Source: Brachionus manjavacas
Taxonomy: Eukaryota; Rotifera; Eurotatoria; Ploima; Brachionidae
NCBI GenBank assembly: GCA_019054805.1
Contig: JAHQIY010000008.1
Location: forward strand, 4,945,501-5,009,500
DNA length: 64,000 bases
Direction: 5' to 3'
This document shows positions 21,059 to 45,300 of the stretch, one piece after another (the first letter of the stretch is position 1; the number at the start of each line of letters is the position of its first letter). The notes below the pieces were generated by a model, which saw only the letters and a program-made list of their open reading frames with translations, was not told where the DNA came from and made no database searches. The position numbers and the translations under genes were made by a program.

Positions 21059-21371
21059 TTATTGATTTTTCTTATCATCATTATCAATGGCTTCTTGATC
21101 ACCACTAGACCTGTTTTGAAGATTTTTTGGCGGACGGGTGTACTTGATCATCGTCTCAGGCGACCGATACAAAAATATAATCTTTGCATACAATTCTTCT
21201 TCTAGCAAAAACTGCTTGTTTTCTCGCACCATATACACTGATCTTACCAACTTAAGAATTCTATCCACGTTTGGCAACTGCTCGAATATGATTTTCATTG
21301 ATGAATTGACGACCATAATGCGGATAAAACGAGATAAAGCAAGCACAAAAGTTATATATATACCTATAATT
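21059..21371 (-). CDS. PIEZO: Piezo alternative last exon, distal copy (canonical-like)
   Basis: The acceptor CTCGTGAAG is followed by a 103-codon frame plus stop in the phase required by exon 21864-22050. It encodes the pore-lining inner helix ([20 protein letters not shown]) and the C-terminal domain. It keeps the family ending closely: [36 protein letters not shown]. The SPET sequence includes the Pro-Glu pair that forms a cytosolic constriction in mouse Piezo1, and the Phe of the M-F constriction is kept while the Met is Ile. A 25-residue charged tail follows. Confidence 0.9.
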
Positions 21372-24300
21372 CTTCACGAGAAAAAAAAATAAAAAAAATA
21401 TTTAAATGCGAACTGTTGTGTTTTTTGGTCTTCGTCTTTCTAATTCTTTTCGATTACATTTGGTTATGTGAATCATGAAAGCCGGATCTCGGTAGATATA
21501 AATCAACTTTTCATATAGCTCATCTTCTAAGTCGAGGAGTACCAGAGATCTAACCAGAAGTATATCATTGAGCAGCTGAAGTATTTTATCCACATTGGGT
21601 AATTCCTGGTAGATTATTTTTGTCGATGAGCCCACAAGTGCATCTCTGACCAGCTGGGCAATTAAAATAATGAAGGTTGAGTATAACCCTACAATACTAC
21701 AGGTGATAAAAATTAGCCTCTTATCTTATAAATTCAGTTCATGCAATAAGCAAAAAGCACTACATAAAAGTGATTAAGTTACGAGAGATTGGGTCAGATC
21801 AAGCGTTAGGAGAAGACATTAGGAAGACAAAATAACACTCAAAAAATAATATTAAAAATTTACCCTTGTTCGGTAATAAATGAGATGCTTGATGGAGAAA
21901 CTTGATCACTTACTACTACAATTGACAAATAGCCAGATTTGGAGCATGGTGGAGTGTAGTTTTTTGTTGGAATTTCCAAAGCGTCCCACCACAAGTTATT
22001 CGATTGGTTTCGTAATTTTATTTGAATGTCAACATAATATTTAAGTTTTTCTTAATATAAAATTTTTGATCAAAATTTTCAATAAGTAAATAAATCATGT
22101 GGATAGATAAGATATTATTTTAAAATAAATTAATTGTTAATAATTTAAAAATAATAAGCAAAAATTTTTAATAAAATTTTTTTTTAATTAATAAATTTTT
22201 AATTATACTTTAAATTAAAAAGAATTTTTTTTTTTTAAAGGTTTATCAAAAAAATTCATAAAAATCATTTAATTCTTTGAATTTTAAACACGAATTCAGT
22301 TTAACAATAAGTACGTAAAAACCAAAAATATGGTGAATGTTCAATTCATAGATTTTTTTTTCAAAAAATTATTTTAATCTCTTGAATTTTTCGTTGACAA
22401 TAAAAAGACAGGCAGTTAAAATTTTGAAAAATCCATAAAATAAAAATTCTTATTTAAATTATCCGGATTTACTTTTTTGTATTTTATATTTTTTTGAAAA
22501 TCTTGCAAAAAACATTTAAAATTTGTTTAAAAAAAAAGTTAAAAATTGTTATTTGATATAATCAAATTTTGTGTTTTTTTTAAATACTTTTCTTTTTAAT
22601 TTTCTTTTATTTTTAACTAATTTGAGGGGAGCCTCGGGCAGCACAGAATGGAACTAAGTTTTCCTTTTTGGCCCAACGAGTAAAAAAAACGAAAAAAAAA
22701 AAATGAATAAAAAACTAAGACTAGTTTTTAAAGAGATGAGTTAAATATCGTTTTTAATAGATTCGAGTATCTAAAAATCTATCCAAAAAAGCCCATTAAT
22801 ATATTTCTATCAAATGTATGTTTATTAAAGCATATTTATTCTTATAAAAATAAAAAAAATGCTTAATCAAATTGAAAATTTTAGGGCAAAATATAAGGTA
22901 CAGTCATACCTTCGTATAACGAACCTCAATTTAACGAAATCCTTGAATTAACGAAATGAAAACTAAGAATCGGAAATAACTATTTTAAATTCTATACAAA
23001 AAATTTTCGAAATAACGAACTTTGATATAACGAAATTTTGATGCAACGAAATAAAACTAAAGAACAAATAAATAGGTTTCTTTTAAAAATTAACTTCCTA
23101 TAACGAAATTAATTTCTAAATCATCCGATACAGAACCGAAAAACGTAAATCTTTTACACTTGAAACGAAGGTTGAAATAATTAAAAAACATGAAAAAAAT
23201 ATTTCAACTACAGAACTGGCGAAACAATACAACTGTAGTCCATCTACAATTTCAACCATATTAAAATCAAAAGCCAAAATTATGGAACATTATCTTATTA
23301 TTATTATTTATTATTTTTAAAAAAAAATACATACACCTCATAGGCATTTAGTAAAAAAAGGTTCATTTATATATATAAAAAAAAAGTATTTATATAAAAA
23401 TTTAAGTCACTTTTAATAAAGCATTTAGCTCATTGTACAAATAAAAATAATTAGTTTTATTCAATATAAATTTTTGTATTAGATAAAAATAGTATTTTAC
23501 AGAATCAACTAAGCCCATGTTATTACCCATAAATAGGGAATTAACCAGTTCTACCATCGTATTTGGATCATAATCAAGACAGTTTACATACAGTTTTTCT
23601 TCAACACTTTTGATTTGTTTACAAAAGGACGTATTGTCCCTGTCATAAACTTCATTTCCTTTTTTAATTTCATTAAAAACTTTCCAGCATAAGCTATTAT
23701 TTATAATTTGTTTTAAGAAAAAAATTTTATGTTTGTAGTAAATCTGAACATTATGAAAAAATTTTTGTCGGTCCAGAAAAAAAAACGAATTAAACTATCA
23801 AATTACGATGACGTCGATCAAGCTGTAATTTTTTGGTTTAATCAAGTAACAAAATATAAAAACGTTACAATCAGTGGTCTCGAAATCCAATTACAAGCAT
23901 TGAAATTCTCGATTATGCTGGGTCATCTAGATTTCAAAGCCAAAACTCTAACGACGAAGAAGAAAAAGAATATCGAGAAATTTTAAATTATGAAAAAAAA
24001 ACTCGATTTTGATAAATACGCATATGTTTCGACGCAGAACTTCTAGCTTTTGGTACATTAAGCGACGAAGAAATAGTAAAAAAAGTTGGCTGTGACGATC
24101 AACTTAATATAGCGACTGATTCAGACGAAAATGAAGAGATAGAAGAAATTTCAAAACCAACTATTAATTCAAAAGAGGCTTTAGATAAAATTAACGACTT
24201 GAGAATTTTTTTTTTCTTTAAATAATAGCGATTGTTCTAGTTTTATCAATAATTTGTTTAGTATTGAAAACTTTTTGATTGATATGCTTTTACTAAACAA

Positions 24301-27300
24301 CCTTCTTTGAATGAGTTTTTGTTAAATAAAAAAAATTAATTTTTCCATTTTATTTTGTTTTCTTTTTCTTTTTTTTTAAACATTATTTTTCCAAAATTAA
24401 ACTTTGAAAAAAAAATTTTCTCTTAATCCTTTAACATGTAAATTTTGATATAACGAATACCAAAATTTCGAACCGACCCTTTCGTTATACCGAGGTACGA
24501 CTGTAAAAAGTTTTAAAATATTATTTTTTTATTAAAAAAATTTAAGGAAATTTGTCAGTCTAATACTCTGCGAATGTAATGCATCAAGTTCAAGTCTAAA
24601 GGATATAAAATCGGGCGATGGTCTAGATTCGTGCTAGCTGAATTAGTTAAAAACAATTTTAAATTTCACAAAAAAGTGGAAATAAGATTTTCATTGATTT
24701 TCGTAACAAGTAATTAACTTGTTCAAAAATATCTGGAAAAAAATTATTTTTTTAATTTTAATTTTTTTTAAAAACAATTTATCTTCTAAAAGTAAACCTT
24801 CGCAAAAAGTCTTTGTTCAGAAATTCAATTGGTAAATGCGGTCCGGCTGCCTCAACTAGAGGACTTAGTAAAAGAATAAGATCACAATGTTTGTGGATAA
24901 GATTCACGCAGTCATTCTACTATTACTCCTATTACTACTGTTGAAATTTTGTATATAAAATTTTAATGGGCCAGCATAAAATATTTTTTTTACTTATTAA
25001 TTAATAATTTATTTATTTTGAATAAAAATATTCTCGTGTCAAAAAACAAAAGTTGTTTGTAAGCTTAAATTTTCGAAAATGCTGGTTCTGTAAAATTCAG
25101 TACACAATGATAAAAAAAAACAAAAAAAAATATAAAAAAATTTGAGTAACTTTTTTTCTAAAAGCTTAAAATTAGTTCTGTGAAAGCATCATAATGCAAC
25201 ATTCAAATTTGCATCAAGGTCTGCTAATTTTACAATATAATCGAGCGTAGTGCATTTTGCAGAGATTTTGCAGACCTTTACAGTTGATGCAACTTTCAAT
25301 GCTGTATTCACAGAACTAATTTTAAACTTTTAGAAAAAAAGGTTATTTAATATTTTACACTTTGTTCTGTTCTTTTGTATTGAACTTCAAAAAACCGAAA
25401 ATGCTGACATTAAAATATTTGGTAATTAAATTCACTGATATAATTTAAATTGATCAAATTTTTTTCTTTAATTTGATTCAACTTTTTAAAATTTTGAATT
25501 TTTTAATTATTTTCAAAAATCCAAAAAATTAATTAAAAATTTAAATAAAACTATTTACCCGAATTTTTCATTGAATCAATTTCCACAATATTTCCTTTAG
25601 TTCTGGCATGAACAAACCTGGGATAGACCGATTCTAGCTTGACACTTTTAGCACTATTTTCGTTATTTAGCATTTTGTAAAGCTCCAATTTAGTTTCGTT
25701 GTAGAGCTTTGACTGCTTGGAAGCTGAAACAACCTCACTGATTTGTTCATTCTTAAGGCCCGTAGACACTCTTGTAATTGAATAAAAAAAATTAAGCTCA
25801 ACTGGATCAGGTTCATTCAATTGTTCTTTCAGATTTTCAAAACTGGGTGGACTTATCTGCCAAATTGAAGTCGAATTTCCGGGTATAGCTATGCAAAAAA
25901 CATCATCCGGAGTATAGTCTTTTAAAAAGCTATAAGAACCAGAATCAATGTTCTTCAAGGAATTGAAATCATTAAGGCTAAATTTTTGTGCAAGACGCTG
26001 CTGAGAGGACATCGAGTAAATCTGTAGGAAACCGGCAATCTGCAAGTCAACTTTGCAAGTCTGTGGTGGAATTGATTCATTGAAGTCTTTGCTAACAGAA
26101 AACAGAAGCAATGGAAACCAAATGATGAGTATTATTATTGTCAAAAGAAGACCTCCAAAGCCATACTTGATGGTGGCTTTACGCTTGTTACCTCTTGGAG
26201 TAGGATATTTCTAAAATAAATGTTTTAAAATAAATTTTAATTTCAGAATTTTTTTTTTATTTTTTTAAATACATTTTCGTTGTATCTGAAACATTTGAGG
26301 ACAAAAATATTGGCGTAAATATCTTCCATCTGAAGCCAATCTGATAGACTAAGAGAGGTGTCGGTAAACATCCAGTCCATGAGCGATCTTAGCTCGAGTA
26401 AAAATGGAACTAGAAGAAAACCTTTGAAAAGGACAAGGTTTATGTAGCTGTAACTCTTGGTCAAAAAATTTCCCAAAATTCTAGTCGGGTATCCGCATCT
26501 GATTTGTCTGGAAGAATAGCCAAAGTAAATACATTTCACCAAGTACCATATTTGAACAGGCTTATTTGCAGTAAAAGGCAATTTGGTGATGTACGGAAGG
26601 ACAAAAAAAACCCAAATGTGAACAAAAAGAACCAAAGCCAGCTGGAATAAAAATTTTCCAACCCTGTTCTTTCTTAGATATAAAGCTCGATCAACTATCA
26701 TGAGAATAAATTGAATCAAAAACATGACCAAAAACGAGTACGGCACCTTGTTGTCTTTTATGGAACTTACCACACTGTTTGAAGAATCCTCGGCTGCCAA
26801 ATAGGCCGACTCGCCGAAGTACTGATATGTAAATATAGTTATGATACAGTTTATGAACTCACAGAGGAATGTTTTAGCATAGCAGTCCACAACAACGGCA
26901 TAGTGTTTGGATTGAATGTCACGATAGAATTTCAAAAATGGATTAGTTGTCTTTTCTCTTAAAATAAATGTTATGTTAAAAGCTTTAGTAGTTAGATAGG
27001 AGTTAGGTGAGTGTTATGATTTCAAGCTTTTACAAGACATGGAATAGATATTTACAAGACAACATTTAATAATAGGAGGGAAAATAAAATTTAAATTTAC
27101 ATGATTTTTTTTAGATAAAATTCTAATTTTCTTTTAAAAAAAATTTTTTTTTAATTAACTTGACTTTGATTTATCATTTTTTGGATAAAAAATTTTGTAG
27201 GTTGATCCAACTTCCGGTTTGTGACGGTATTGTAATTAAATTTTAAACAATTTTAAATTATAATATTTTTTTTTCGCAGCGCTAAGACCTCTCAAACTTA

Positions 27301-30300
27301 AAACAAGAAAAGCAACTGAAAAATTGGACCCTGTACTATTTCAAAGCTTGATTTAGGTTCAACAACCATGTGTTAAGTTGAGATTTAGAACAAATGTTAT
27401 TTTGGAAAATGATTAAATTCTTAATTCTAAATAATCCTAAAAATCATATTCTTCTTTTTTTCAATTTTTAAAAATTAAGATAATTTGATTGCTGAAAAAA
27501 TTATTAACTCATACCATCAGGTATACACTGCCGATTTGACACATTGATTTCTGGTAATTTTACTTAAAATTACGTAAATTCACTTTTTGTTACAAAGGAA
27601 TTTTGGGTTAATTTGCGTAATTTTACGTAAAATTACCAGAAATCCGCGTGTCAAAGCGACACTGTAAATTTTTCCATTTTATTTCTTTGTATAATATGTA
27701 TAAAACTTTGTCTTTTCAAATTTTATTTTTTAAAAATAATTTTTATAAAAATTTCTTTATAAAATCTTTATTATTTTGAAATTTTTTAACAAATACATGA
27801 ATTAGCGAAATATTTTAAACTTGTCATAGTCAAAAATCTAAACAAAAATTCCAGACTTCATGCGGTTCGATCAAAATTTAAGGACCGCGAAGTTAAAATT
27901 AGAGAATAAACCTTTAACAAAAAAATAAATATAGCTCTTTAATTTTCCATTATTTACGTTTTTATTCTTCATAGATTTTATTTTTTAATTGTGGAAACCT
28001 GTTTTTTCAAGTCAAATATTTATTTAAAAATAAAATTCAATTAATTTTTTTGAATAGTATTCTCTTAATTATTGAAATTATTATTAATTTTTTAAAATTT
28101 AAAAAGTGATTGAAACGCTTAAGTGACAAATAAATGAGGAAAAAATTTTGGCAAATTGTTGCTGAGATTGAATTAAAGTTAAAATTTAAAAGATATTTAA
28201 CAGTCTTCGACAAATTGATAAAATGAATTTTTTGTCCTCTTTTATTCACCACCTTTTGTTTACACACGTGTAAAAATTTAGTAAAAAAACTTATTAAAAA
28301 ATAAAAAATTTAAATCTAAAATTCGACTAAAGGCTCTATTTTTGAATTTTTAATGCTTCTTTAGCCTTATCCAATTTTTTATATAATAATAATCTCTAAT
28401 TGCTACCAAGTGAGATAATTAAGAAGCATTTCTATATAAAAGCATAAAAAATCATTATCTCAATCTTTTTGTGCTAAAGAGACCTTTGTTGGTTCAGATA
28501 AACACAAAAAATGGCGAAAATTTTTTAATAAATTTAACTTTAGTTTTGTTAAATGAATTTTGATCTTACTTAGAATTTTTTGTAAAACTCCATTGACTAA
28601 ACATTTTATTTGAATGAATTTTAGCAATTTTGAAACTTTAAATTTTTTTTATAAAAAAATGCTATAAAAAAAAGTTTAAGGTATTTGTTAAGTCAGACCC
28701 AATTGGAAATTTTCCTTTAAAATCTTAATATAATTTGATAATTTTAAACTTAAATTAAATACAATACCGTTTAAAAAAAATTAAGTCAAATAAAATTTTT
28801 AATTACTTTGATACTTGTTCTGCTTTATTCTTTAACCGCTTAAGACCAATATTTTCAGCATCGTCATAATCATTTGCATTTTCTTCTTCAGTCAGTTCAG
28901 GCTCATCGACAACTTCACCTGTTTCAATTGGTAAATTTTCACTAGTCTCCTCATCTAGATCATTTTCAGCATTAATCTCCTTATTTTTGATTGTAATCAT
29001 CTCGTCATCATCCTCATCATTTGAATAGTCTTTCCAAAGGCCAAGGCGCTTGAGAATTGTTCGGTGCAAAAATATCACCAGCAGACAAAATAAATCAAAC
29101 ACAGCAAAATTATTAATTTTCGCTATGCCAAGTACTTGAAGCAATTTTTTAAGTGACTCCTTATCCTGAGAAAAAAAGTCAAATTGAAAAAGGTATTTAA
29201 TAACCACAATAGCTTCGATGTATGTGATGCTGGAAATCCAAAAAGTTTTTGTCGGACGTGGTAGACAAAGCATTGCCCATAAAAATATTGAAATCGGTAA
29301 TGGCACCGAGAGCAGTGAGGCTGATTTTAAATGATTTAAAATCATAAAAAAATAGCAAATAAACTCAGATTGACTTAGAGCAAAGTAAAATATAGAGGAA
29401 AGGAATTTGTCGATTCTAGATTGTGAATTCATATGCTGATTCAACTCTTTCAAAGCTTGATGGATATCTTGGTCAGTTAAGTAGCCGTCTATTGATTGCA
29501 TCGATGGTTCTTGGCTGTTCGAGTTGAATTTCAGTTTAAGCTTTTCTTTAGCTAGCATGTGGGATACCAATCGGAAGTCTTTGGATTGCTTGTTTAAGTA
29601 AAAAATGAGAACATCAATAGTAATGAGGAAGTATTTTTCAAAGTAGTATTTGATGGTCAGAAAATGTTTGTTTTCCACTGTTAACCAGCTTTTTTTTTGT
29701 TCAGTTTCTTTTTCATTTTCGTTTTCTTTTTTATCCAGAATGATTGCTGTTGACAAAATTGCTTGCTTCATTTCTTTTGAGAAATTCGAAGAAGAGTCGG
29801 ATGACGATAAAAATTCTTCATCTAAATCTTTTGATTTAGGAGCTTGGCTATTTAGATCAGCACATTCGTCGGCATCTAATTCTTCATCAAACATATAATA
29901 GTCGCCAGAACGTACAGCTTAAATAAAGATTAAATGTATTAATAAAAGTTAAAGATTACGATCGAGCTTGCGAGTGGAAAATATTCCATTTTACCATTTC
30001 AATAAAGAATTTAATTTTTTTTAATAAATTTTTTTTTTTAAATATTTTATTAGAAAACATTAGTTAAAAATTTGATAATTTGAAAATATTTCTAGAAATA
30101 AAACCTACTCTGACCGAATTCGCGATGAATTAGAAGCATCATATGCAGTAAAGAACAGTGTTGTGAAGAGAGAAGCAAGGCGTCATAAGAGATCATAAAT
30201 AAACCAGCGTACTAGTGAAGCAGAAGAATTCAGCTAAAGATCTACATATGCTACACAAGTTCACTAAAATAACATGGGCTCTTCAGGTTAAAAGAGCAAC

Positions 30301-33300
30301 GTTAGTGAAGGACAAAGAAGATTTTTTAACAACTAAAAGAGATAAGGGATAAAGATGTGCAGAGTACTCTAGAAAAGTTCTAAATAACGGGTGTAGAATA
30401 AAAATGGCACAAAAGTTTGGTTTAATTTGTTATAAGAGTGGACAAGACCTTTTGCAATTTTTTTTCAAAATTTAAAATCAGGCTGATCCTAACTTTAAAA
30501 TAAATATAAATTATAAAGTTGAATTTTCGACAAGTTGTTAGTAAAAATGTACGAAACCATCAAAAAAGATTTGTACAACTTTGTAAAAAGTAACCAAAAT
30601 TTGCCAAAATGCGAAGTTGAAAGGCAATTCACTTTATAGAAGTAACGTTAACAAGACCAGTGTTGGGGGCCGGTCGAGAGGCCATGTGGCCGGCCAGAAA
30701 AAAAAAATGGCCGAGACCGTGGCCGGAGGTGCAGGCGGCCAAAAAACGGCCGGTCGAAAAAACGGCCAATGACCGTGAATGGCCGGCCAAGCCGCGGCCA
30801 ACTGACGTACCGACCGTGAAATGGCCGGCCAAATTTTAGAAGACCGTGTGGTGGCCGGCCGAGTATCGGCCAAATAAAAAACCGACCGTGAAGTGGCCGG
30901 CCAACTGAAAGGCCTTTAAATGGCCGACCGTGTGCAGACCGGCCGGCCACAAAACGGTCCAAAAAAAAAATTTTACGTAGATGATTAAAAATATTTAAAG
31001 ACATTAAAATTTGCATTTATTATTTATCAAATATTCTGAATAAGCTAATTTTTAATTATTACCTCATTTTTTTCCGATATTTTTCAGAAATCCTTAAATT
31101 ATATATAGTAATTTTGAAAGAAATTTTAAACTGAATAAGGATTTGATCCATGCATAATATGATCAAAAATGAATAATTGTACTAGACAACTGTGCTATAA
31201 GGATTTTAAAAAAAATATATTTTATTCTTATTTATATTTTTGAAAATTTTTATTTTAATTTTATATTATATTAAAACGTTTATTAAAAAAATAACTAAAA
31301 TTCAGAATTCAAAATTACTATATATAATTTAAGGATTTCTGAAAAATATCGGAAAAAAATGAGGTAATAATTAAAAATTAGCTTATTCAGAATATTTGAT
31401 AAATAATAAATGCAAATTTTAATGTCTTTAAATTTTTTTAATCATCTACGTAAAATTTTTTTTTTGGACCGTTTTGTGGCCGGCCGGTCTGCACACGGTC
31501 GGCCGTTTAACGGCCTTTCAGTTGGCCGGCCACCACACGGTCTTCTAAAATTTGGCCGGCCATTTCACGGTCGGTCTGTCAGTTGGCCGGTCCTGAAAAG
31601 GTCGGCCTTTTTAAAAACTGTCCACAGAGGGCCGACCAATTCACGGACGGTCAAAATTGCGGCCGTTAAATTCACAGCTAAAATAGGCCGTTTATAGTGG
31701 CCGGCCAACTGGCCGTTCAAGTCCGGCCGGCCAACTGGCCGTTCAAGTCCGGCCGGCCAACTGGCCGTTCAAGTCCGGCCGGCCAAAGTTGGCCGCCCCC
31801 CAACACTAAACAAGACGCCGGAGAGATTAAAGAACAAGTACGTTAAAAAATTGGAAGAAAAATTATTGGTCTATCAACATGTCCACCTTGGAGAGTTTAT
31901 TAAGAAACGACTTGAACCAAAGATTAAAGAATATTGTCAGGATGGCAATTATGTTTTTTTCGCACGACTGAGCATCATCTCATTATGCGAATATGGTATA
32001 AAAATAAAAGGTATGTTTCCAAAGAAGTGAATCCAGAAAAAGTACCAAAAGCACGACCAATCGAAGATTTTTGGGGAAACTTGAAAGCCAAAGTTTATGA
32101 GGATGATTGGAAGGACAAAAATCTTTATCAACTCGAAAACAAAATTCGCACTTGCCTGAGCAATATGGACCCAAAGGTTGTACATGCCCATGCCAAGACT
32201 GTTCGCTCTAGGCTCGATATCATACGTCGTCATGGAGTTCAATACCTTAGCTGATATTATTTTTTCAAAATTGGAGGGTTCAGTTGAAATTTAAAAATAA
32301 ATTTGAAGCCTTTGTTAAAAAAAAAATTTTTTATGATAAAATTAATTTTGTGCCATTTTTTATTCTACACTCGTTAGATTAGATAATCAGCTAGCACTGA
32401 TATTGTCACACAACTGACTAGCCCAAAAGAAATATAAGCTGCGGTGAAAGCTCTGAAGAACAAAAAAGTCCCGGGTATTGACCGAGTCACGGCAGCAACA
32501 CTGAAAGATCATAATAGAGATAAAACAAAACCTTTTGAGCAATATATAGCGGTAAGAAATCATACTAGAGGACTGGTCAAAGACCTTATAGTCAAGCTCC
32601 CTAAGAAAGGTAACAAAATGATTTGTGACAATTGGCGAGAAATAGCACTGTTTCCAATAGCAAGCAAGGCGTTCCGCAGCATAATACTGGAAAGAATCAG
32701 GAACTCCTTGGATGTTATACTTAAAGAAGAACAAGCAGGATTTAGACGAGGTAGAGGATGCATAGACTAGGTATTTACACTGAGGAACATTATAGAACAA
32801 AGTCTGGAATGGAATAGCCCCGTGTATCTTAATTTTTGTGACTTCAAGAAAGCCTTTGATAGCATACACAGAGAAACCTTGTGGGCCATATTAAGATCTT
32901 ATGGCCTAGCACAGAAGATAGTTAACTTGAAGATAGTTAAAACTCTTCTACGAGAAATTCGAGTGTAGCGTCATTCTGGAAAAAAGGCAATCTGAGAGCT
33001 TCAAAATCTGTACAGGATTCCTAATAAAATGAGTACATGTCATGATAAAAAGTACTGCCAGTGCGAGGGGTATTCAATGGGGATTAACAGTAAAGCTTGA
33101 AAACTTAGACTTTGCGGATGATATGGCGCCAATATCCAATACAGAAGGACAAATACATATGAAGACGCAAGGACCTAGACATGTACTTAGAGTGAAGGAA
33201 ACTCGAGACACCAGAAAGAGACCTCTCACTACCATGCTTTTCGATTAAAAAAGAATTTTTAAATGTATCAAATAATATTGAAACTAAAAGCAAAAAAAAA

Positions 33301-36300
33301 AAATTAGAAATCAATTAAGCCAAAAATCAAGAAGACATTTTTTACTGGTCTTTTTGAAGATTTGTTTGAAATTTTTCACCGCAAAGAAGTGACTTTTATT
33401 TTAGATTTGGCAAAGAATATAAATAAAAAATTATATTTTCTTATCAATTTAAAAAAATACCATTTAAATAAATTTAATTATTTATTTGTTTATCTGTACC
33501 GAGCTGATGCTCCTTCAGAATTTTTAAGATCTTTGCTTCTTTTATGTTCAAAATTAAAAATGACACAGGCGGTCATCTACGGAATAAAAATAAAATTTTC
33601 GCTTTAAAATTTTTTGATTTTTTTTTCATTTTAAATGATAAAAAGTAAAAATTCAATTACATAATTTTAATTTAGCCTATTCTCAGCCTTTTATAAAAAT
33701 ACTATTTATCACTTTTTTATAAGTAATCAACCCTCGATTTGTCTTTTTCTTTTTTTTTGTTAATACAGTGCTGCTACGATACCTTGAATTCACCATATTT
33801 TACGTAAATTATGGTAAAATACCGATAATTTATTTATTTATTTCAATGAACGCCTTAAAGGCGATGTTAATAAAAATTTAGAAAATAAAATGTAATAAAT
33901 AAGACAAAGTTTTAGTGTTTTCTAAAAAAATATTTAATTTAAATATTTAATTTTAATTACTGTAAAATTCAGTGAAAAAAAAAATTTCCAAAATTTCTCG
34001 AAAAAAACTGGCTTGTAAAATTTATTCCAAAAGGATCAACATTCAAAGAAGCTTGGGACAAGACAGCTAACAGCTTAAAAGCAAAAAAAGCTAGAAAATA
34101 AAATTTTTTTTGTAAAAAATGTTTAATTATTAATTTTCATAATTTGTTTAGAAAAAAAATTGAATGAAATAATAAAAAATCCATTTTTCCTTTTCTGTTG
34201 AATTTTTACCATTTTTTACCTTTTTTTACAAGAATTTACCGAAATTTACGTCAATTTTTGTCAAAAAATTTTTTTTTGTTTTCCTTTTTCAAAAATTCAA
34301 AAAAAAATTTTTTCGTGGAAATTGGTTTTTTTCGAGAAATTTTGGAAATTTTTTTTTTACTGAATTTTACAGTAATTATCGGTATTTTACGGTAATTATC
34401 GGTATTTTACGGTAATTATCGTTATTTTACGAAAAATACCCTTTTTTAGATTACCATATTTTACGGTAAATATGGTAAAATATTGTGAATTTACCATAAT
34501 TTACGTAAAATATGGTGAATTCAAGGTATCGTAGCAGCAATTGTATTTCACATTGTATTTCACAATTTTTTAAAAGTTTTTAACTTTTTTTTTAAAAAAA
34601 ATTTGCTTAAAAATAAAACATCCGTTTCAAAGCTTTTTCATTAAGCGAATTCAAGAACAGCAAAAATTTTTTATTTTATAAAAATTGTCAAAATCAAAAA
34701 TTTTTTTAAAACCTAATGCAAAGCTAAAATTATTAAAATTTCTATTATTTACCAACTAAAAGACAAATTTAGATTCAAAATATTTAAATATAGAAAAAAA
34801 AAGATCCCTAATTACCTTCATAATGATCTTTTGGATTCTTGGCCACTTTATCAGTTTGATGCTCTCTAATTCGCTCAACATTAGCTTTCAGTTTTTCCAA
34901 AATTTTGTCCTCTTTGTCTTTTTCTCTTTTAACTTTGTGTCGAATTATTTTCTTAAATATCTCAGCACCTCTAGATAAAAGAAAATTGATAAATTTTGCC
35001 AAAATACATTTTCTAGAAAAACTACCTGGCAGCTAAAATTGCTTGGGCTCGATATTCATTTACCACATGTTCGAACATGTTGGACATGTAGAGACGTCGC
35101 TGAAGCAACAATACCAGAAAACAAACAATGTCCCATACCAGACCGACATCTCCTGAATCATCATTTGCCAAACATTTTGTTTCCGGAAATTTGTCGGATG
35201 GAAGCGCTTTGCAGTTTATGCCAAAAATGTCAATCAATAGGCAAATAGAACTAACTTTACTCGAAAAAATACAAATAACTATCTTTTTTTTTAATAAATT
35301 GATTTAGTTTATTTTTTGCTTTTAATTAAAAAAATATCTACCTGCAGTACTGCTTTGATAAAAATGACCAGAAAGCAATAAGAGACAAGCACGTTCCAAC
35401 TTAAAAAATAGACAATTAATAAAAAAATTCATGAGAAATAAATTACAATTTTAGGAGTTTGTTCAAAGGTCGCATCAGAAAAGTTTGTCCCATCCATAAG
35501 AAAATAAAGCTCAAAATGACGTATCCCATGCACAGGATACTTATTCGGCTTGTGCCGGACAAAAAAACTATTGCCAAAACCAGCCAGTATGAATACATGT
35601 AAATAGCATATTTTAATCTGTCCAAATAGTTTCTAGTCTTTGAGATAAAATCGTGGAATGGGTTCGCTTGAAGAGGATCTTTTTTTTCATAAACAAGCTC
35701 GTCATTTTTTCCACCGATTGTTTCTATCATGCTGGTGGAAATTTTTGCATGCTTGTCCATTTCCAGATTGAATACATTCAATTGTAGCCATACAAAGAAA
35801 ATTTGAAAAAAGTCTGCAATTATTTTTGTGGCTGATGGAGGGCTTGAATAATCAGGGAGAAACAGCCAAATTCGAGCCTTGTTTATAATGTTGTTGGGCT
35901 GGCTTCGATTCCACTGTGACCACGGGTACTCATAGCACAGCACTGATGGTAGCCCCAGGCATCCAGCATATTGAATTGGAAGTAAAAGGATTAGAAAAAC
36001 AAAATAGTAAATCCATATTCTTCTGATAGCTGTTCTTCTCAGATTCAAAAATATGCCTAGCCAAATTCCGTATACCAAAGCATACAGATCCATTCGAGTT
36101 ATTATCACAATGGAGGTCATGAATAGACAAATTTCCAAGCCGAATCGATAGAAGAAATAATTAGCCATATATTTTAAAAATTGGAAAAAATCTTTGTCCA
36201 TATCTAGCCATGTTATGTGGTCAAATAGAATGCTGTAAATGGGTGGTGGGATGTTTTTTTTTAACCTGTAGTGTTTTTGCTTGAGTTTGACTATTTTTTG

Positions 36301-39300
36301 AAATGTCAATAATAAAAATATGATGATGTAGTACTTTTATTAAAGTAGTTAAAATTGAAAAATTTCGAGCTTAGAGGAAGATTACTTTTAGGTTATCTTG
36401 TATATTATCTGCCTTTTGAATGCCAATGTATTTCAAGTTGTCCTGGGGTTTGAGCAAAAATGGATCAATTGTTGAATCTGAACGATTAGTAAACTAAAAT
36501 TTTTTAATTATGAAAGTATTTTGTTTTAATAATTTTTTTTTTCAATTTTACAATTTTATTATAATAATTAATAGAATTAAAATACTTCGATTTGAAAATT
36601 TTTTTAAAGGCTAAAATTTTATGATCAAAAAAATTAAAATCTAATTAAAAGAATTTATTCCTAAAAATTTGGATTCAAACAACACTAAAAAAAATTTCTA
36701 ACTCTTGATTCAAAATAATTTTTTTAGAAGAAAAAAATTGATAATTAAGTTTTGGAATTATGATTTTTTTGAGCAAAAAGAACAGTACAAAACTTTAAAA
36801 TTATTATTATTATATTAAAAAAAAATTTTCTCTATGCCTACGATTTATTTTTCAAATATTTCAGCTGATAAAAGTTTATCTATCACCTAAATTTAGTTTA
36901 ATATACAAAAAATCTGCAATTCGTTTGCAAATCTCCATTTGGCAAGTTTTTTTTTCTATTTAACTTTTTTGAAATTTTGAAATTACGTTGTTTCATTAAA
37001 ACTCAATACTTAAGCATGTAAAAATTTGAAATATAATTACGCAATTATTTTTAGAAATGTAAAATAGAAAAAAAAACCGCGTATAATATTCTTAAATAAC
37101 AATAAAATGCAATTTAAAAACTAAAATACTGAATTAGGAACAAAATTAAAACATTTTAGTTTTTTTTTGTAATTAATGTCAATTACATTTGAATTGATCA
37201 CTATTTTAATTTAGAAATACATTATTGATTGAAATGAAACTCTTATACAATCAAAAAAACCTAAATTATTTATTAATTAATCCTATAATGTTCAAAAAAA
37301 TTGCCACTTTAAAATTTTTTATCTTTCATTTTTTGTTTATAAAATTAACACTTTTGATTTTATTTTTATATAAACCAATGTAGCCTTATCTCTAGTTCGA
37401 TATAGTTAATCAAATAAATAAATGAATTTTTAAAATAACTCGGGAATTAAAAAAAAAATTCCTGTAATTGAAGAAATTCCTAATAACATATCTCAAGATC
37501 AGGCTTTTGAAGCTAATACTAAAGGAAAAACTAGAGGAAAAGGTAAAAGTTATTTTCCCTTCTGCAGTTTTCGCTCCTTGGAGGATGCTAAAAAATGCCT
37601 CGATAGAGAATTTGATTTTTTTGTCCTTAAAAAAAATATTCTGTTTTTATTTTTATTTTTTTGTTCTATTTAGATAATTAGTACTTTATATTTCTAATAA
37701 AAAGTAATGAATAAAAAATTTTGTTCCAAATTCAGTATTTTAGTTTTTTTTTTGCATAAAATAAACACAGGTAATAATTATATGCCAACAACTTAAATAC
37801 TAAAATGTGCCTGTTTAACTCTTCAACTAAGCTTTATAGACTATAATCTGTCTTTAAAAACAAATAACAAACAGTCCACTTATAAAACATAAAAAATGAT
37901 AAATAGTCATAAAAATTTACTGAATTTAAATAAATATTTAAACTAAAAATTTTTCAAATATTTTATTCAAATTTTAATATTTTTAATTTAATTTCAAATT
38001 GCTTTTCAAATTAAAATATAGTTCGAATTTTAATTTAAAACTGACAGTTTTCGAATTTAATTTAAAAAGGGAAAATTAATCAAATTTAAATTCAAATTTA
38101 ACTGATATTCAAAATTGTATTCGACTTAATTGAACATTAAATTGTTTGTTTAAACATTTTTTTATTTTAATTTTAAATTTATGTCCTTTTATGTTCAAAA
38201 AAATAATTCGATTTCATGACTACATTTTTGATTTATTTGTTTTCTGGTCAATAAAATAATTCTTCTGTTTAAAAAAAAACGGCTTTTAAAAAAATAATTA
38301 GCTGATGAAAAGAAACTTTTTTCATCAATTTCTATCTTAAATTTATTTTAATAAATTATTAAAGAAGAAATATACCTGTACTGTTAATTTACTTAGAATC
38401 TCGAATAAAAAATGTAAAAATTACTTTATTTGATTTAGTCAAGTTTAAGTGAAAAAAAAACCGAATAAAAAAAATCAAAACAAAAATTACTTAATTTATA
38501 GCCTAAAATACTTAGTTTTTACCTAGTTTAATTATTTTACTAAACATTTAAATAAAAAAAAATTATGTCATTTATATTAATAATATTAAAAAAAATTGAC
38601 TTGCATAACCAAGACGACTTTTTTTTTAAACATAAAAAAAATAATTTGTGCAATGTTTTAAGTATTTTAACAGTAAAGGTAATGATCGTCCATTAATAAA
38701 TAGACTATGAATTAGTTGCTACAATCATTTTGATAAATTTTACTAATTAGAGAAAATAATTAGGATTTACTTACTGTACAATTGGTGACCATTGGACTGT
38801 GAACAAATTTTAATTGAAAAAACATCGATGAAATAGTTAGCACTGAGATCCAAATTTGAACAATTCCCGAAAAAATTGAATTTATTCTCTTATCAAACTC
38901 ATTGCAATGGCTAGCAAGGATACTAAGCAAAAGTGCTACAAATAAAATCAAGTTTAACAATGTCACATTTTTGATGCAATAGATTCCTATAAGACAAATA
39001 AGAGCTTTATAAACATGTATTTCGGCTAAACGCCACATATAAACTGATACAATTGAATACCATTTGTTGACTTTTTTGATATTTCTCTTCAAAAACGACA
39101 AAAAATTTTCTTTTTTTCTTTTTAATTTATTTTCCTCATCAGAAAGATTGGTCTGTAAATTGGTGACAACCAGATTGGTGTTGATACTGCTTGTTGGTTC
39201 TACCACTTCGACCGATTGGTCTGTGAATCTTTTTGAATTTGTTAACTTCATCCAGGAATCGTGAAAATAGTGATTTTGGATTATGTTGACAATAAGAAAA

Positions 39301-42300
39301 GTTGTTGGCGTGAGTAATCGAACCACTAGTTGGTCAGTTTTGTCGAATTTTTCAAAACCAATTGATGACAATATTTCATCATCAATATTCAAAACACGTT
39401 TAAAATACACCGGTACTTCGTCAAATTGGAAAATGTAAATTAAAACAAGAACTATCATTGAATAGATAATCACAATAAAATTAAATATGTACAATGACAT
39501 CCTCCAAAATGTATTAAGCAGCTTAAAAATAAAAAATTTAAACATACATGATCGTTAAATTTTTAGCTTTTAAAAAGGAATGCATGATAAATGCAAAGCC
39601 TTGTTTTGGTTTCATAACAAATTTATGAAATCCTGAGCCATTTGTTTATCTACAGAGAATATATTTTTATAAGAAAATAATTTTTATTGTCATTGTATTT
39701 AAGTTTAATTAAAAATATTCAAATTTGTTTTTTTCCCAAAAGTAATGCATGAAAAATGTGGATTTGATTTACGTAAAGTGAGGTGAAATTTCACAAAAAA
39801 CAATTATTTTTGGTAAAAAAATATTCAAAATAGACTTTATGAAAAATAATAATTATTGTAGATTTCACTTGTTGGCTTTTCTTTTAAAGCATAATCTATT
39901 ATCTGATTCACAACACGGCTTCATGCCAAAAAGATCATGCTCAACAAATTTACTAGAACCGCTGGATTTTATCACGTCAGCTCTTAACAGAGGTTTATCT
40001 GTCGATATTATATAAACTGATTTTTCGAAAGCATTTGACAGAGTATCGCATAGGTTGTTATTATATAAACTTAAGAGACATGGTTTTACTGATACTGATA
40101 TGGTTTTACTGATAGGGTTCCACTATGTCAAATTGGTTCAGTTCAGTACCTCAAGGTTCAGTTTTGGGACCACTTTTATTTTTAATATTCATAAATGACC
40201 TTTCGATTGGTTTAGTTAATAAACGTGAAAAATATGCCGATGATACTAAAGTTTTTTCTGTAATTAAGAGTTTACAAGGCAATCTTGTACTTCAAAAAGA
40301 TATTGATATTCAAGCTGGTCACTTACTTGGTCGTTGGATTTAAATATTGAAAAATGCGGTGTAATGCATATTGGCTCAAAAAAGCTTTGTTTAATTATAC
40401 AATATTTAGTAGATATGGAACGAAGAATTTATCTAAAACAAATCTTGAAAGAGATCTGGGTGTTTATATTCAAAGTGACTTGAAGTGGACTAACCAAGTA
40501 AAATATTGTACTATCCGTGCAAACCGTATTTTGGGTATGATCGCTAAGAGTTTCAGGAAGTTGAACATTGATACATTGAGAATGCTTTATACAGCACTGG
40601 TTAGACCTCATTTAGAGTTTGCCATTTGCTCATGGTGTCCGTTCCTCGAAAAAGACATTCCTGAAATCGAGAAGGTCCAAAGAAGAGCGACAAGAATAAT
40701 CCCTTCACTTCGAAAATATGACTACTCGAAAAGACAGGAAATGTTTAACTTTACTAATCTTAAAATAAGGCGGATGAGAGGCGACTTAATCCAACTGTTT
40801 AAAATTGTTAACAGATATGAAAATATCAATTTTGAAAATGGTATCAATTTTTCCCGAAATCACTCTTACAACTTAAGAGGACATAACAAGTGTATTGTTA
40901 GAGAAGATGCGAAAAATTTTTTGCAACGATATCATTTCTTGACAAACCAAATAGTTAATATTTGGAATAGTCTTCCTCAGTACATCATCAATTCTGGATC
41001 AATTAATAACTTCAAAATTAACTTGGACAAATGGCTGAGGAAACAGTCTAATTTACTGCCATAGCTTCAAAGAAGCTTAACCCGTTAAGGTCGCAGTATT
41101 TCCTACTACTACTACACTTGAATTTTTTTAAAAATATTTTGTATGTTTTTTAAAAAATTTTCTCAAAATTAAGATTATTTTGGAAAGTTTTCTTAAATTT
41201 AGATTTTTCACTTTTAGGATTTAATTTTATAAATACTCCTGTCGGATAGTCTAGAAATAGTGGCTATGTGTCTTTTGCTTACTGTCATTTGAATTTTCAA
41301 TTTATTTCATATTAAATTAAATTTTTTTTTAACTAAAAAAGACCATGATTTTCTTCACACATAACAAAGGAATTGTTTAATATTAAACTAATTACCTCAC
41401 CAAAAAAACACTTAAATTATGACATTGTGTAAAAAAATTAACATTTTGAAGTTTTGATTTTACTGCCACAGACTTGTATAAAATTTGAAAGTATTAAATG
41501 TCAAAAAGGAGTTATTAAAATTTTCTTAAAAAGTAAAAAAGTTCAAGAAAAATATTTAAAATCTCAACTCAAAAACATTGCTTGAATTTATAGTTTTATT
41601 TTTACTTTCTTTTCTAATAGACTATTAAAAATCATAAAAAAAAATTTAAATGTTTCTCTTGGACTTGTGACCTTTATAAAGCTTTTCATTATTACTGAGT
41701 ATAAAACTAAGGGCTGTTCAGCTTGATAAAATTTTTACTTAATTATATGGTCATAAAATTGAATTCATTAAAAATTGAATAAATTCTCAACTAAATTTAA
41801 CTTTTGATTTAAAAACTTTTTGAAAAAATTAATTTTTTTTATCTTATCCACATTTTATTATTTAAGGAAAATTTTATCAAAAATCTTTTGAAAAATTCAA
41901 ATCAGCTAAATAACATGACTATTGGGTCACCAAGCTGACTAGTCCCAAAACTCATGCAATAAATAAAAGATGGTCAGAAATTGAATTTTTTCAACTTTAA
42001 TTCTTTTACATTTTTTCATCAATACTATGACAAAAAATGCTGTTTTAATTCAATTACTAGACTTTAAGCTTAAATTAAAAATAACACCAAAAATTTGAAT
42101 TACTTGAAATGTAGTAATAAAATACAAAAATAGACCCATGTATCCTATTCGATAGGCGACAACTTCGTTTTGACAGCTCATCAATAGGAGCATAAGAGAT
42201 GAGAGAAAAATCCAATATTTGGCAAAAATAGACTGAATCCATTCGACAATTTCAGCCTGAAAGTTTTGATCCAAAAAAGGAAATTGACTTGTATTGGTCT

Positions 42301-45300
42301 CATGTGTTGGAATGTTTAAAACTGTTGCTTCGTGTCGTTCTGCAATGAATTGATGCAAAGTTAGCCAGAAAAACAATGTAAGAGCAGCCTTGATTGCCAA
42401 GTGAATTATTGGAGTTTCATGCTTTTCCAGACCGATTTCTTTAAACTCGGGCAATTCTGCTGAATTTAGTCGCAGGCTATAAATAAACTCTAAAATCAAA
42501 AGTGCTATTGAATAGGCGACTATTAAAGGAGATGATCTAAGACACCACTGTCTTGTCTTTGGCAAAGTCCAAATTAAACAAGCCCATAGTAATAGGACAA
42601 GAGTGAGGAGTGAATGGTACAAAATACTCCATGCCATCATTGAAACCAACGATAAAAGATAACTTTGTTTGTTAAAAAATTTGAATATTGATATTAAATA
42701 TGCTCGAGTGTAGTCGAAGAAAATCGCTGTTTGACGACGTTTTTTGTGATTGTCTTTTCGTCGCCGAGTGTTCGATGATACATCACTGTTGCTATTGACT
42801 GAATGAGTAGTAGAGGAAAATTTTTTTAGCCTCAAATTGGCTGTTTGAATTCCTGATTCAGTTCCATCAGCAACAAAAAGTTTCTTTGAAAAAAATTTTT
42901 TTTTATTTTATTCTTTAAAATAAATTTTAAAAAAAGCATCAAGCAAATTTTTATTAAATCCCCGAGCATAAAAAATGTGCAAACAAATAATCTAGATTAA
43001 AAATTTTGATTTACTAATTTTATAATTTCAATGGGGATTAGGGATTTTTTTAGCCGATTTTTTCTTATTGATGATTTTATTCTAAACTTCATGCCTTTTA
43101 CCTTTTCAGGATCAATTAGTTTTTTATCATCCAAATCAATCAAAGAGTTCTGATCATTTATTTGATCTGAGTTTATGGTTTCGTGTACATAAACTCCGAT
43201 CTTTGAATTTAATTTAAATTTGTTTTTTATTTAAATTAGTCTGTTAGTAAAAAATCTTGGCTCAAAAATTTAAAAATTTTTTGAAAAATTGAATGGGTTT
43301 TTTATCTTTTGACGCTAGATATGTTCATTCAAAAAAAATTATTTCACTGATCGTATCAATAAAACAAATTGCTAGGATTAAAATTTAATTTTATCTCTAG
43401 TTGTGAAGCATTCTTGCTTAAAAATTGCCAAATCTAAATTTTGAAAATTTTTTCAAGTCTTGAAATTAATAAGTTTAATTTTTCATGTTTTGGTTTTTGT
43501 GTCATTTCGTTAATGACTAGAATCTTCGATTGTTTTCTTGATATAATGTTTTTTCAAAAATTCAAATCAAGACATTTTTTAAAAATTTCAAAATTGAAAT
43601 TAAAAATTTTAAAGTCAAAGCTGGTGATTTAATACCACAATGTTCAATATTAAATCCAATTTTACTCAACATTTATACAAAAGATTTACCAACTACACAG
43701 ATAAGACTTTTTCATTATTTATCCTGATGATCTGGCTACTCTCTTTTTTTTTATAAAATTCAGAAATTTTTGAGCTCCAATAAACGAGTTTTTTTTAGGT
43801 AGAAAATGACTAAGGTTTAGGCAATTCAAAACTTCAACATTGTCTAGAATTAGCAATCAATTATGTAGAATGCTACATTTTTTCAAGAGAAAAAATAAAA
43901 AGTCAAAAAAGAATTAAGTATTTTTTATTTTGATTTAATTTAATTAAAAAATTTAGAAAATTTTAAAATAAATAATACTGAAGAAACACGATGTCAAAAT
44001 TAATGTGGTTCAAATCATAAACTTTAGTCAGAAATATTAATTTATAGTCCACAACCTCCGTCAGATTCTATCAATCTTAATAATTTTTCAATAAAATTAA
44101 AGCTGATAATTTTTAAAAATTTTTTACAATCTGAGTTTAATCGGATTTCAGATAAATAATAATCGGATAAAAGTTAGAATGCCTGAGACTATGGTTTAAG
44201 ATTTGGAACACTTTAAAAATAATTTTTTTTAAAAAGAGTCTAAATTAAGAAATTCTTCAGACTTAAGTTTTTAATTTCAAAAAATCTTTTTGAATCTTAG
44301 AAAGCAAGCCGTTTTTCACGCGGGAATTTTTTTGAATAATATGATAATTGCAAAAAGAACAGCAGGCATAAACTAAAAAGCAAGTAAGCTATTAATAAAA
44401 AATCTTCAACGATTATTGTAAATAATTATCTAAATTAAATTTACATACTAACACGCTTTTTTCTAAAATTCTTTGGGTAAAAAATACCATTTACCATAGT
44501 TAAGTTTTTAGGGGCTATTTTTGATGGGATACTTTAAAGTAGGTAACAACATTTAGGAAGAAATGAGCTCTTCAACCGAAAACTTTGGAATATATCTAAA
44601 AAGCAGTTGTTGAGTAGTTCATAAACTACTTAAATAAGCATAATTATTAAATATTTTGTATATTCTGAAAAATAAAGTGGATTTTTAAAGATTAAAATTT
44701 TTATGGCATAAAAATGCCTGCAAACAAGTTATTTTTTGATTAAAATTGCTAAAATTTCTCAAATGAAACATTATTCTACTATCATCTGTTAATTTATGAG
44801 AAAAAAAATAAAAAGTAATCTTTTTGACTGATGATAAATAGTTTGGACTTTTTAATTTTAGGTAAATAGCAGAATAAAATTTAAGATTGATCAATTTTTA
44901 AAAATTTCAAGAATTATCAAAAAATTAAAAATTCCTTGGCGAAATTACAGATGACTATCCTTTTTTGGGAAAAAAAATTAAAAAAATTTTGCTCAAAATT
45001 TTATACAACTACACAATCTTTACTGATTTTTTGATAAAAATATTTAATTTGATAGTACATATCATAAAATAATGAATTGAAAAAAACAATGACGTCAATA
45101 GAAATCGATTTTAAAATTTTTCAAATCTTAATCTGGAATTTTTGTTGAAATAAAAATTCATTATGTGTTTATTCATTAGAAGAGTGACTTTGAACTCAGG
45201 TCAGCATTGTACACTTTTTATCACTGTAATTAATTAAACATATGGCGTGGAAAAGCTTTCCAAATTTAAAACACATTTACAAAACGAGATAAAATTTAAT

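What the first reader, a model, noticed from the sequence alone, without database searches (positions are those of the whole stretch)
21059..21696. Tandem alternative last exons swap the pore helix and C-terminal domain of Piezo
Two homologous terminal exons (21402-21696 and 21059-21371) are both open, have acceptor sites, and are in the phase needed by exon 21864-22050. Each encodes a complete inner pore helix plus C-terminal domain. They differ at positions known in mouse Piezo1 to shape the cytosolic constriction: Phe kept versus Tyr, and SPET versus DPAF. The intron tract before the distal exon is squeezed into about 30 bp after the proximal stop. One 3' splice-site choice, with the distal exon becoming 3' UTR in one isoform, would give channels with different pores. 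I know of no described Piezo gene arranged this way.
Basis: partly seen in the sequence, partly recalled or inferred. Interest (0 to 1): 0.88.

Follow-up and report, generated by a model that had tools for sequence, protein, structure and literature searches.

The report
Piezo gene with two interchangeable pore-ends
A rotifer's only touch-channel (Piezo) gene carries two different, both intact versions of its last exon, so that choosing one splice site or the other would build channels with different pores; gene models of other rotifers and of molluscs show the same kind of double exon, so it is probably an old and working switch rather than a relic.

Summary
In a 114-Mb genome that is rotifer by its best protein match (Brachionus calyciflorus), the only Piezo gene found ends in two tandem, homologous, open last exons (21402-21696, 21059-21371). 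Both match Pfam Piezo_cap, follow the donor at 21863 in the right phase, and lie 30 nt apart. Each encodes the inner pore helix and C-terminal domain; no other Piezo exon piece searched is doubled in the window. A B. calyciflorus model and an mRNA-like monogonont contig use the distal exon; no proximal-exon product was found for monogononts. The proximal exon shows no decay and long past constraint, but recent loss is not excluded.

The arrangement recurs: of 12 bdelloid models seen, six contain both copies in this order, one ends in a proximal-type exon, five in the distal type; Solemya, Mya and Octopus models hold an analogous pair. Eighty-three columns cannot say whether this is one duplication or several. 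The copies differ at sites that in mouse Piezo1 govern inactivation, its voltage dependence, cation selectivity and the constrictions. The papers listed by my searches describe no such gene; a 2025 review knew only cassette-exon Piezo splicing. Best reading: a working alternative-3'-splice-site switch of the pore. RNA and electrophysiology are missing.

The parts
21864..22050 (-). Penultimate Piezo exon (end of the cap domain), shared by both forms; ends two bases into a codon
   Evidence: Junctions fixed by alignment to B. calyciflorus P0003; PF12166 profile 149-218
21858..21863 (-). Shared 5' splice site AGG|GTAAAT
21697..21863 (-). 167-nt intron removed when the proximal exon is used
   Evidence: inferred, no transcript
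21402..21696 (-). Proximal last exon: inner pore helix and C-terminal domain, 97 aa plus TAA
   Evidence: open frame; PF12166 2.1e-25; solved Piezo chains from 4.8e-17
21372..21401 (-). 30-nt spacer: T-rich tract and the distal 3' splice site (...CTCGTGAAG|A)
21059..21371 (-). Distal last exon: inner pore helix and C-terminal domain, 103 aa plus TAA; becomes 3' UTR when the proximal exon is used
   Evidence: open frame; PF12166 3e-35; this junction reproduces the B. calyciflorus model P0003; orthologous exon joined in the monogonont contig P0226
21025..21063 (-). Two AATAAA signals (starting 21063, overlapping the distal stop, and 21030); no AATAAA or ATTAAA elsewhere in 21900-20900, so both forms would share the 3' end
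25559..36493 (-). Upstream Piezo exons modelled with junctions: 36493-36386 (its 5' end not determined), 36333-35447, 35399-35342, 35282-35026, 34970-34816, 29917-28807, 26957-26273, 26210-25559
   Evidence: Pfam Piezo domains on the longer exon frames
38763..49284 (-). N-terminal Piezo exon frames (around 49284-48100, 42907-42053, 39554-38763), boundaries not refined
   Evidence: tblastn of bdelloid P0019; PF24871 on the 39554 frame

Best explanation
It is a splice switch of the Piezo pore. The donor at 21863 is joined either to the acceptor of the proximal exon (21696) or to that of the distal exon (21371). Proximal use makes a protein that ends at its own TAA, with the distal exon carried as 3' UTR. 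Distal use removes the whole proximal exon inside a 492-nt intron. A protein with both whole copies cannot be made: the proximal exon ends in a stop, the gap is 30 nt, and of ten GTs inside the proximal exon the two with the right phase read GTT, where all nine donors of the gene model read GTA. Each product is a full Piezo with a different inner pore helix and C-terminal domain. From mouse Piezo1 data I predict that the distal form (L/A at the gate, Arg at 2479, E2495 and E2537 kept) inactivates more slowly and otherwise stays close to canonical. The proximal form (I/L at the gate, Gln at 2479, Gln at 2495, Ala at 2537) should inactivate fast, with weaker voltage dependence and altered permeation. 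Shown: anatomy, homology, long past constraint, recurrence in gene models of relatives. Inferred: use of the proximal site in this species today, regulation, the biophysical difference, and possible mixed trimers.
For: Frames, phase, spacing and shared 3' end. Single Piezo locus in the assembly. Distal use: B. calyciflorus model P0003 and P0226, a 410-aa protein filling a 1257-nt contig, so probably mRNA. Proximal copy: no stop in 97 codons; 15 of 19 sites conserved in at least 90% of 55 reference sequences kept, distal 18 of 19; 8 of 12 four-fold silent sites differ from the distal copy, which is the saturation level (0.695), while 35 of 80 residues are identical; a neutral branch of length 1.0 would leave 17% identity and an open frame in 0.25% of 2000 runs. 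Recurrence: of 12 bdelloid models, six hold both copies in this order, P0126 ends in the proximal type with its own C-terminus, five in the distal type; mollusc models P0026, P0072 and P0007 hold two copies. Functional sites: PMC6349400 and PMC7815867 (passages); PMC4445471 (abstract and outline) ties Piezo1 permeation to the C-terminal region.
Against: No record with the proximal exon was found for any Brachionus; in the search aimed at it 1 of 138 candidates passed, and it carries the distal exon. Recent loss of the proximal exon is not excluded: after a neutral branch of 0.10 or 0.20 the frame would still be open in 22% or 6% of runs, and a branch of 0.10 would leave 79% identity, the same as the share of conserved sites kept; saturated silent sites only show an old copy. 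The silent estimate rests on 12 sites (interval 0.35-0.90). That conserved sites match better than variable ones (Fisher P=0.0013) would also be expected of a copy that stopped working recently. With a small acceptor profile from eight introns both acceptors score low (distal -1.4, proximal -4.9, against 2.4 to 12.3 for the eight left out in turn), and six of 45 AGs downstream of the donor score higher than the distal one, so the profile neither supports nor excludes use. The frame-specific codon signal of the proximal exon is weak: 0.140, against 0.130 in the +1 frame. Six bdelloid models splice both copies into one protein; I read these as prediction artefacts but cannot prove it.
Confidence: 0.76

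Rival explanations
1. The proximal copy is a relict exon that is no longer spliced; only the distal form is made.
For: Only the distal exon is documented in monogononts (P0003, P0226). The proximal end branch is long (1.87, 2.23, 1.78) and its acceptor scores lower than the distal one. A recent loss (neutral branch up to about 0.2) would leave the frame open in 6 to 22% of runs.
Against: 97 open codons; 15 of 19 strongly conserved sites kept; silent saturation with 44% protein identity, so an old loss is unlikely: at a neutral branch of 0.35, which alone would give about the observed identity, the frame stays open in 1.6% of runs. The proximal copy is as similar to mollusc proximal-type Piezo (46.0%) as to its own distal neighbour (43.8%).
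Confidence: 0.16
2. Both copies are included in one protein, as six bdelloid models show.
For: P0019, P0021, P0062, P0123, P0124, P0125 join both copies.
Against: Here the proximal exon ends in TAA, the gap is 30 nt, and the two in-phase GTs (21687, 21507) read GTT. P0126 ends naturally after a proximal-type exon. Five fused models leave the proximal copy after (N/S)PQ plus one residue and one (P0125) only after RETTNTQ, as gene predictors do when forced to bridge a stop.
Confidence: 0.03
3. Proximal choice mainly makes an unproductive transcript that lowers Piezo output, the peptide being incidental.
For: It would leave a 3' UTR of roughly 370 nt or more that contains the distal exon.
Against: No exon junction follows the proximal stop, so classical junction-dependent decay is not expected (general knowledge). 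The peptide is a full pore helix and C-terminal domain with most strongly conserved sites kept.
Confidence: 0.05

Closest known systems
Bdelloid rotifer Piezo gene models (Adineta, Rotaria; database models, not described in a paper that I found)
   Same: Two copies of inner helix plus C-terminal domain in the same order, both beginning at the same residue (I[IV]G[ILF]Y); one model (P0126) ends in the proximal type
   Different: Six models fuse both copies; five models carry only the distal type. The window's proximal exon is on average less like the bdelloid proximal type (37.0%) than the bdelloid distal type (43.5%); orthology is suggested by site pattern only and not resolved by trees
Mollusc Piezo models (Solemya velum P0026, Mya arenaria P0072, Octopus vulgaris P0007; database models)
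   Same: Two tandem copies of inner helix plus C-terminal domain (in P0007 the first copy is truncated)
   Different: The mollusc first type (FILLIGR..L) does not share the rotifer proximal departures from conserved sites; a common origin is neither shown nor rejected
Mammalian Piezo1.1 and Piezo2 exon 33/35 splice forms (PMC12490864 section 13)
   Same: Alternative splicing of a Piezo gene that tunes channel properties
   Different: Cassette exons (for exon 30 and 33 in the lateral plug region), not duplicated last exons and not the pore helix
Drosophila Shaker alternative carboxyl exons (recalled; my search gave a listing only and I read no paper on it)
   Same: Alternative 3' exons exchange the inner pore helix and C-terminus of a channel and change inactivation
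   Different: A potassium channel; unrelated protein; recalled only

Membership tests
Piezo channel family | Piezo domains and C-terminal pore module | tested here: met
   PF24871, PF15917, PF23188, PF24874, PF12166 on exon frames; P0003 at 73% identity over 64% of the query
Alternative (mutually exclusive) last exons | Two homologous terminal exons, each with acceptor, correct phase, own stop | tested here: met
Alternative (mutually exclusive) last exons | Both forms present in mRNA of this species | not testable with these tools
   No RNA for this genome; the distal exon appears in other monogonont records (P0003, P0226), the proximal in none that I found
Alternative (mutually exclusive) last exons | Both copies under purifying selection now | tested here: inconclusive
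   No decay and long past constraint, but a recent loss in this lineage is not excluded. For bdelloid P0126 the conserved-against-variable contrast is not significant at the 90% threshold (10 of 19 against 22 of 53, P=0.28) and is at 80% (19 of 31 against 13 of 41, P=0.012)
Rotifer-wide proximal exon (one duplication before bdelloids and monogononts split) | Proximal copies form one clade | tested here: inconclusive
   64-row tree: one clade 84/67; 59-row and 29-row trees: not one clade, holding them together not rejected (p-AU 0.395, 0.418); a Brachionus-own duplication is not rejected either (0.367, 0.176)
Rotifer-wide proximal exon (one duplication before bdelloids and monogononts split) | Shared departures at otherwise conserved sites | tested here: met
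   At 20 sites conserved in at least 90% of core rows all 7 window departures lie among the 11 bdelloid ones (P=0.004); at 95%, 4 of 4 among 7 of 16 sites (P=0.019); at 85%, 8 of 11 among 13 of 33 (P=0.008). None of 10 control rows reaches P<0.1, but most depart at few sites
One spiralian origin together with molluscs | Rotifer and mollusc proximal copies form one clade | tested here: inconclusive
   p-AU 0.395

The most novel reading that the evidence does not exclude
One duplication of the last Piezo exon, at or before the common ancestor of rotifers and molluscs, has been kept ever since as a pore switch: a splice-site choice exchanges the inactivation gate, the voltage-modulation residue, the selectivity acids and the constrictions of a mechanosensitive channel, giving animals with a single Piezo gene the kind of functional range that vertebrates get from two genes.
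Probability: 0.2. Interest if true: 0.92.

Novelty: new variant of a known kind. Interest (0 to 1): 0.78.

Why it matters
How one Piezo protein can serve mechanical senses with different kinetics is open in animals with a single Piezo gene. Here nature supplies a matched channel pair, identical except for the pore helix and C-terminal domain, so the part of Piezo that sets inactivation, voltage dependence and selectivity can be read from a natural swap. The same arrangement in bdelloid and mollusc models lets one ask whether the pore is a preferred target of splicing, and warns that gene models may fuse or drop one of the two exons.

Tried and rejected
A second Piezo gene or remnant: rejected, one locus in the assembly. 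Haplotype or assembly duplicate: rejected at 44% protein identity. A third copy or other duplicated exons: none in the window among the 14 pieces searched. Tree evidence for a rotifer-wide proximal clade: tried three times, unresolved. Acceptor strength: too few introns to judge. Codon-usage test: the exon differs from intron (0 of 5000 draws reach it) but the frame contrast is weak. Search for other Brachionus proximal exons among proteins of about 244-777 aa: one hit, carrying the distal exon. Papers: among those listed, none is, by title and start of abstract, about tandem terminal exons of Piezo, rotifer Piezo or mollusc Piezo splicing; the lists were partial (for example 20 of 48, 15 of 21, 15 of 215).

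I therefore lowered the main reading from 0.80 to 0.76, raised the relict reading from 0.12 to 0.16, and call present constraint inconclusive.

Rows left out: 64 of 67 exon copies went into (a truncated Octopus copy, a Mya duplicate and a mytilid near-copy dropped); one search drops five further rows; one search uses 29 rows chosen for rotifers and mostly short-branch outgroups. Mollusc models P0031, P0033, P0036, P0039, P0041 were seen but not put in the trees. Single-copy mollusc models were put in the proximal or distal class by their likeness to the ordered copies of P0026, P0072 and P0007.

Full report
What is there. The window lies in an unnamed 114-Mb assembly of 61 contigs. The best match of the gene is Piezo of the rotifer Brachionus calyciflorus (P0003, 73% identity over 64% of my query), so the window is very probably from a monogonont rotifer; the species is not established. 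The Piezo gene runs on the minus strand from about 49284 to 21059. The junctions from 36386 to the last exon were placed against P0003. The penultimate exon (22050-21864) is followed by two homologous last exons. The proximal one (21696-21402) has 97 codons and TAA, the distal one (21371-21059) 103 codons and TAA. Both have an AG acceptor in the phase set by the donor AGG|GTAAAT. Between them lie 30 nt. Poly(A) signals in 21900-20900 occur only at 21063 and 21030, across or after the distal stop, so both forms would share one 3' end.

Is it more than chance. Both exons match Pfam Piezo_cap (2.1e-25 and 3e-35) and solved Piezo structures. A search of the assembly with the distal exon returns only these two places (E 1.8e-61 and 1.7e-17), and the Piezo_cap profile returns these two plus two upstream cap exons: one Piezo gene, with its last exon doubled. 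Of 14 exon pieces searched against the window (one of them in a frame other than the model's) only these two match each other. An intron-like stretch would stay open for 97 codons with probability 9e-4.

Is the proximal copy alive. No expression data are at hand. Over 80 aligned codons 35 residues are identical while 8 of 12 four-fold silent sites differ, the saturation level (interval 0.35-0.90 on 12 sites); differences by codon position are 40, 25 and 52. In simulations that start from the distal copy, a neutral branch of 1.0 leaves 17% identity and an open frame in 0.25% of 2000 runs; 0.35 gives 47% and 1.6%; 0.25 gives 57% and 4%; 0.20 gives 64% and 6%; 0.10 gives 79% and 22%. So the copy is old and was under constraint for most of its history, while a recent loss of use is not excluded. 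It keeps 15 of 19 sites conserved in at least 90% of 55 reference sequences, the distal copy 18 of 19. It is 43.8% identical to the distal copy and on average 46.0% to mollusc proximal-type Piezo.

Relatives. The first protein search listed the best 120 of 1686 Piezo proteins, the second the best 120 of 1062. Twelve bdelloid models were among them. Six (P0019, P0021, P0062, P0123, P0124, P0125) hold a proximal-type copy followed by a distal-type copy; P0126 (Adineta ricciae) ends in a proximal-type exon with a complete C-terminus; five (P0127, P0128, P0129, P0130, P0035) hold only the distal type. In the five proteins with both copies that I compared, the proximal type is 84.0% and the distal type 89.3% identical between proteins (proximal lower in 9 of 10 pairs). 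The acanthocephalan P0131 shows one copy. Outside rotifers, Solemya (P0026), Mya (P0072) and Octopus vulgaris (P0007, first copy truncated) models contain two copies in tandem, and other mollusc models end in one type or the other. P0018, 2356 aa on a 7306-nt contig, ends in the first mollusc type, and P0017, 2389 aa on an 8635-nt contig, in the second: such contigs leave little room for introns, so both types probably occur in mRNA, P0018 and P0017 being mollusc by likeness only.

One duplication or several. Eighty-three columns do not decide. The 64-row tree groups the window's proximal exon with the bdelloid proximal copies (84/67); trees of 59 and 29 rows do not, and neither a rotifer-wide clade (p-AU 0.395, 0.418), nor a Brachionus-own duplication (0.367, 0.176), nor a joint clade with mollusc proximal copies (0.395) is rejected. 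By plain identity the window's proximal exon is less like the bdelloid proximal type (37.0%) than the bdelloid distal type (43.5%), which speaks against a simple orthology; both proximal types sit on long branches. Site patterns favour a shared rotifer origin: at 20 otherwise conserved sites the window's proximal copy departs at 7, all among the 11 where bdelloid proximal copies depart (P=0.004; 0.019 and 0.008 at the two other thresholds). None of ten control rows reaches P<0.1, although most depart at few sites and one, Platynereis, shares 3 of 3. Only two of the seven share a letter (2531 Tyr with all six bdelloid copies, 2535 Asp with one of six); 2532 Ile, at a less conserved site, is shared with all six and seen in 2 of 58 others. 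I hold a rotifer-wide origin to be somewhat more likely than not, and a common origin with molluscs to be open.

What the switch would change. The exchanged piece starts at mouse Piezo1 residue 2466. In mouse, L2475/V2476 form the main inactivation gate; L2475I gives 2.8 ms and L2475S 62.2 ms, K2479 sets the voltage dependence of inactivation, M2493/F2494 and P2536/E2537 are the constrictions (PMC6349400, passages). Neutralising residues including E2487 and E2495/6 reduced or abolished cation selectivity (PMC7815867, passages). Permeation properties follow the C-terminal region (PMC4445471, abstract). In the window these positions read, proximal then distal: 2475 I, L; 2476 L, A; 2479 Q, R; 2487 G, N; 2494 Y, F; 2495 Q, E; 2496 E, Q; 2537 A, E, with 2493 and 2536 unchanged. 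Bdelloids: 2475 S in 6 of 6 proximal, I or V in 9 of 9 distal; 2479 S or T against R; 2537 Q in 6 of 6 against E in 8 of 9. Molluscs: 2476 L in 15 of 16 proximal-type and V in 10 of 10 distal-type rows; 2495 R, L, K or N against D, E, M or T. So in all three lineages the copies differ at the inactivation gate, though in different ways. In the window 8 of these 10 sites differ, against 56% of all sites, which by itself is no clear excess. Transfer from mouse to rotifer is an inference.

How it probably works. One donor is offered two acceptors 325 nt apart. Proximal use makes the proximal protein and carries the distal exon as 3' UTR; distal use removes the proximal exon as intron. Regulation is unknown. 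Both acceptors have G at -4, which none of the other eight introns has; with so few introns this is only a hint that they are weak and regulated.

What is known. None of the papers listed by my searches (partial lists, titles and starts of abstracts) is about tandem last exons of Piezo. A 2025 review (PMC12490864, section 13 read) states that the two articles it discusses, both on cassette exons of mammalian Piezo1 and Piezo2, were the only ones that explored Piezo splicing. A leech paper (PMC7992859, passages) speaks of two piezo genes; the passages mention no exon switch. Subscription papers are mostly not covered. Exchange of an inner pore helix by alternative 3' exons is known to me for Drosophila Shaker (recalled). 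Hence: a new variant of a known kind, with unusual reach if the isoforms are confirmed.

Noticed in passing
P0127, P0128, P0129, P0130, P0035 against P0019, P0021, P0062, P0123-P0126: In bdelloids five Piezo models show only the distal last exon while seven show the proximal one (alone or with the distal); Adineta ricciae, A. steineri, Rotaria magnacalcarata, R. sordida and Rotaria sp. Silwood1 have models of both kinds. One of two gene copies may have lost or hidden the proximal exon.
   Followed up: partly
P0122 (Gonioctena quinquepunctata, beetle), C-terminus: A beetle Piezo model has a second, strongly diverged inner helix and C-terminal domain after a normal one; possibly another lineage with a doubled last exon, or a prediction artefact.
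   Followed up: no
bdelloid distal exons and acanthocephalan P0131, mouse position 2484: A one-residue gap between inner helix and C-terminal domain is in 9 of 9 bdelloid distal rows and in 2 of 21 rows outside rotifers and molluscs (by their lengths these are P0131 and the diverged Gonioctena copy): a possible shared mark of bdelloids and acanthocephalans.
   Followed up: no
window 31699-31786: A perfect 26-bp tandem repeat (3.4 copies, GC-rich) in the 4.9-kb Piezo intron, amid open frames on both strands; two of those frames (31952-32290, 32390-32890) have no Pfam match. Possibly a mobile element.
   Followed up: partly
window 18096-18752 (-) and about 20789: A PhoPQ_related (PF10142) gene fragment lies downstream on the same strand; an ATG near 20789, some 240 nt after the Piezo poly(A) signal, may belong to it.
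   Followed up: no
window 15505-15960 (-): Open frame with Tc5-type transposase DNA-binding domains (PF03221, PF04218).
   Followed up: no
window 23405-23794 (-): A 130-aa open frame without Pfam match inside the 3.5-kb Piezo intron; chance or a nested gene.
   Followed up: partly
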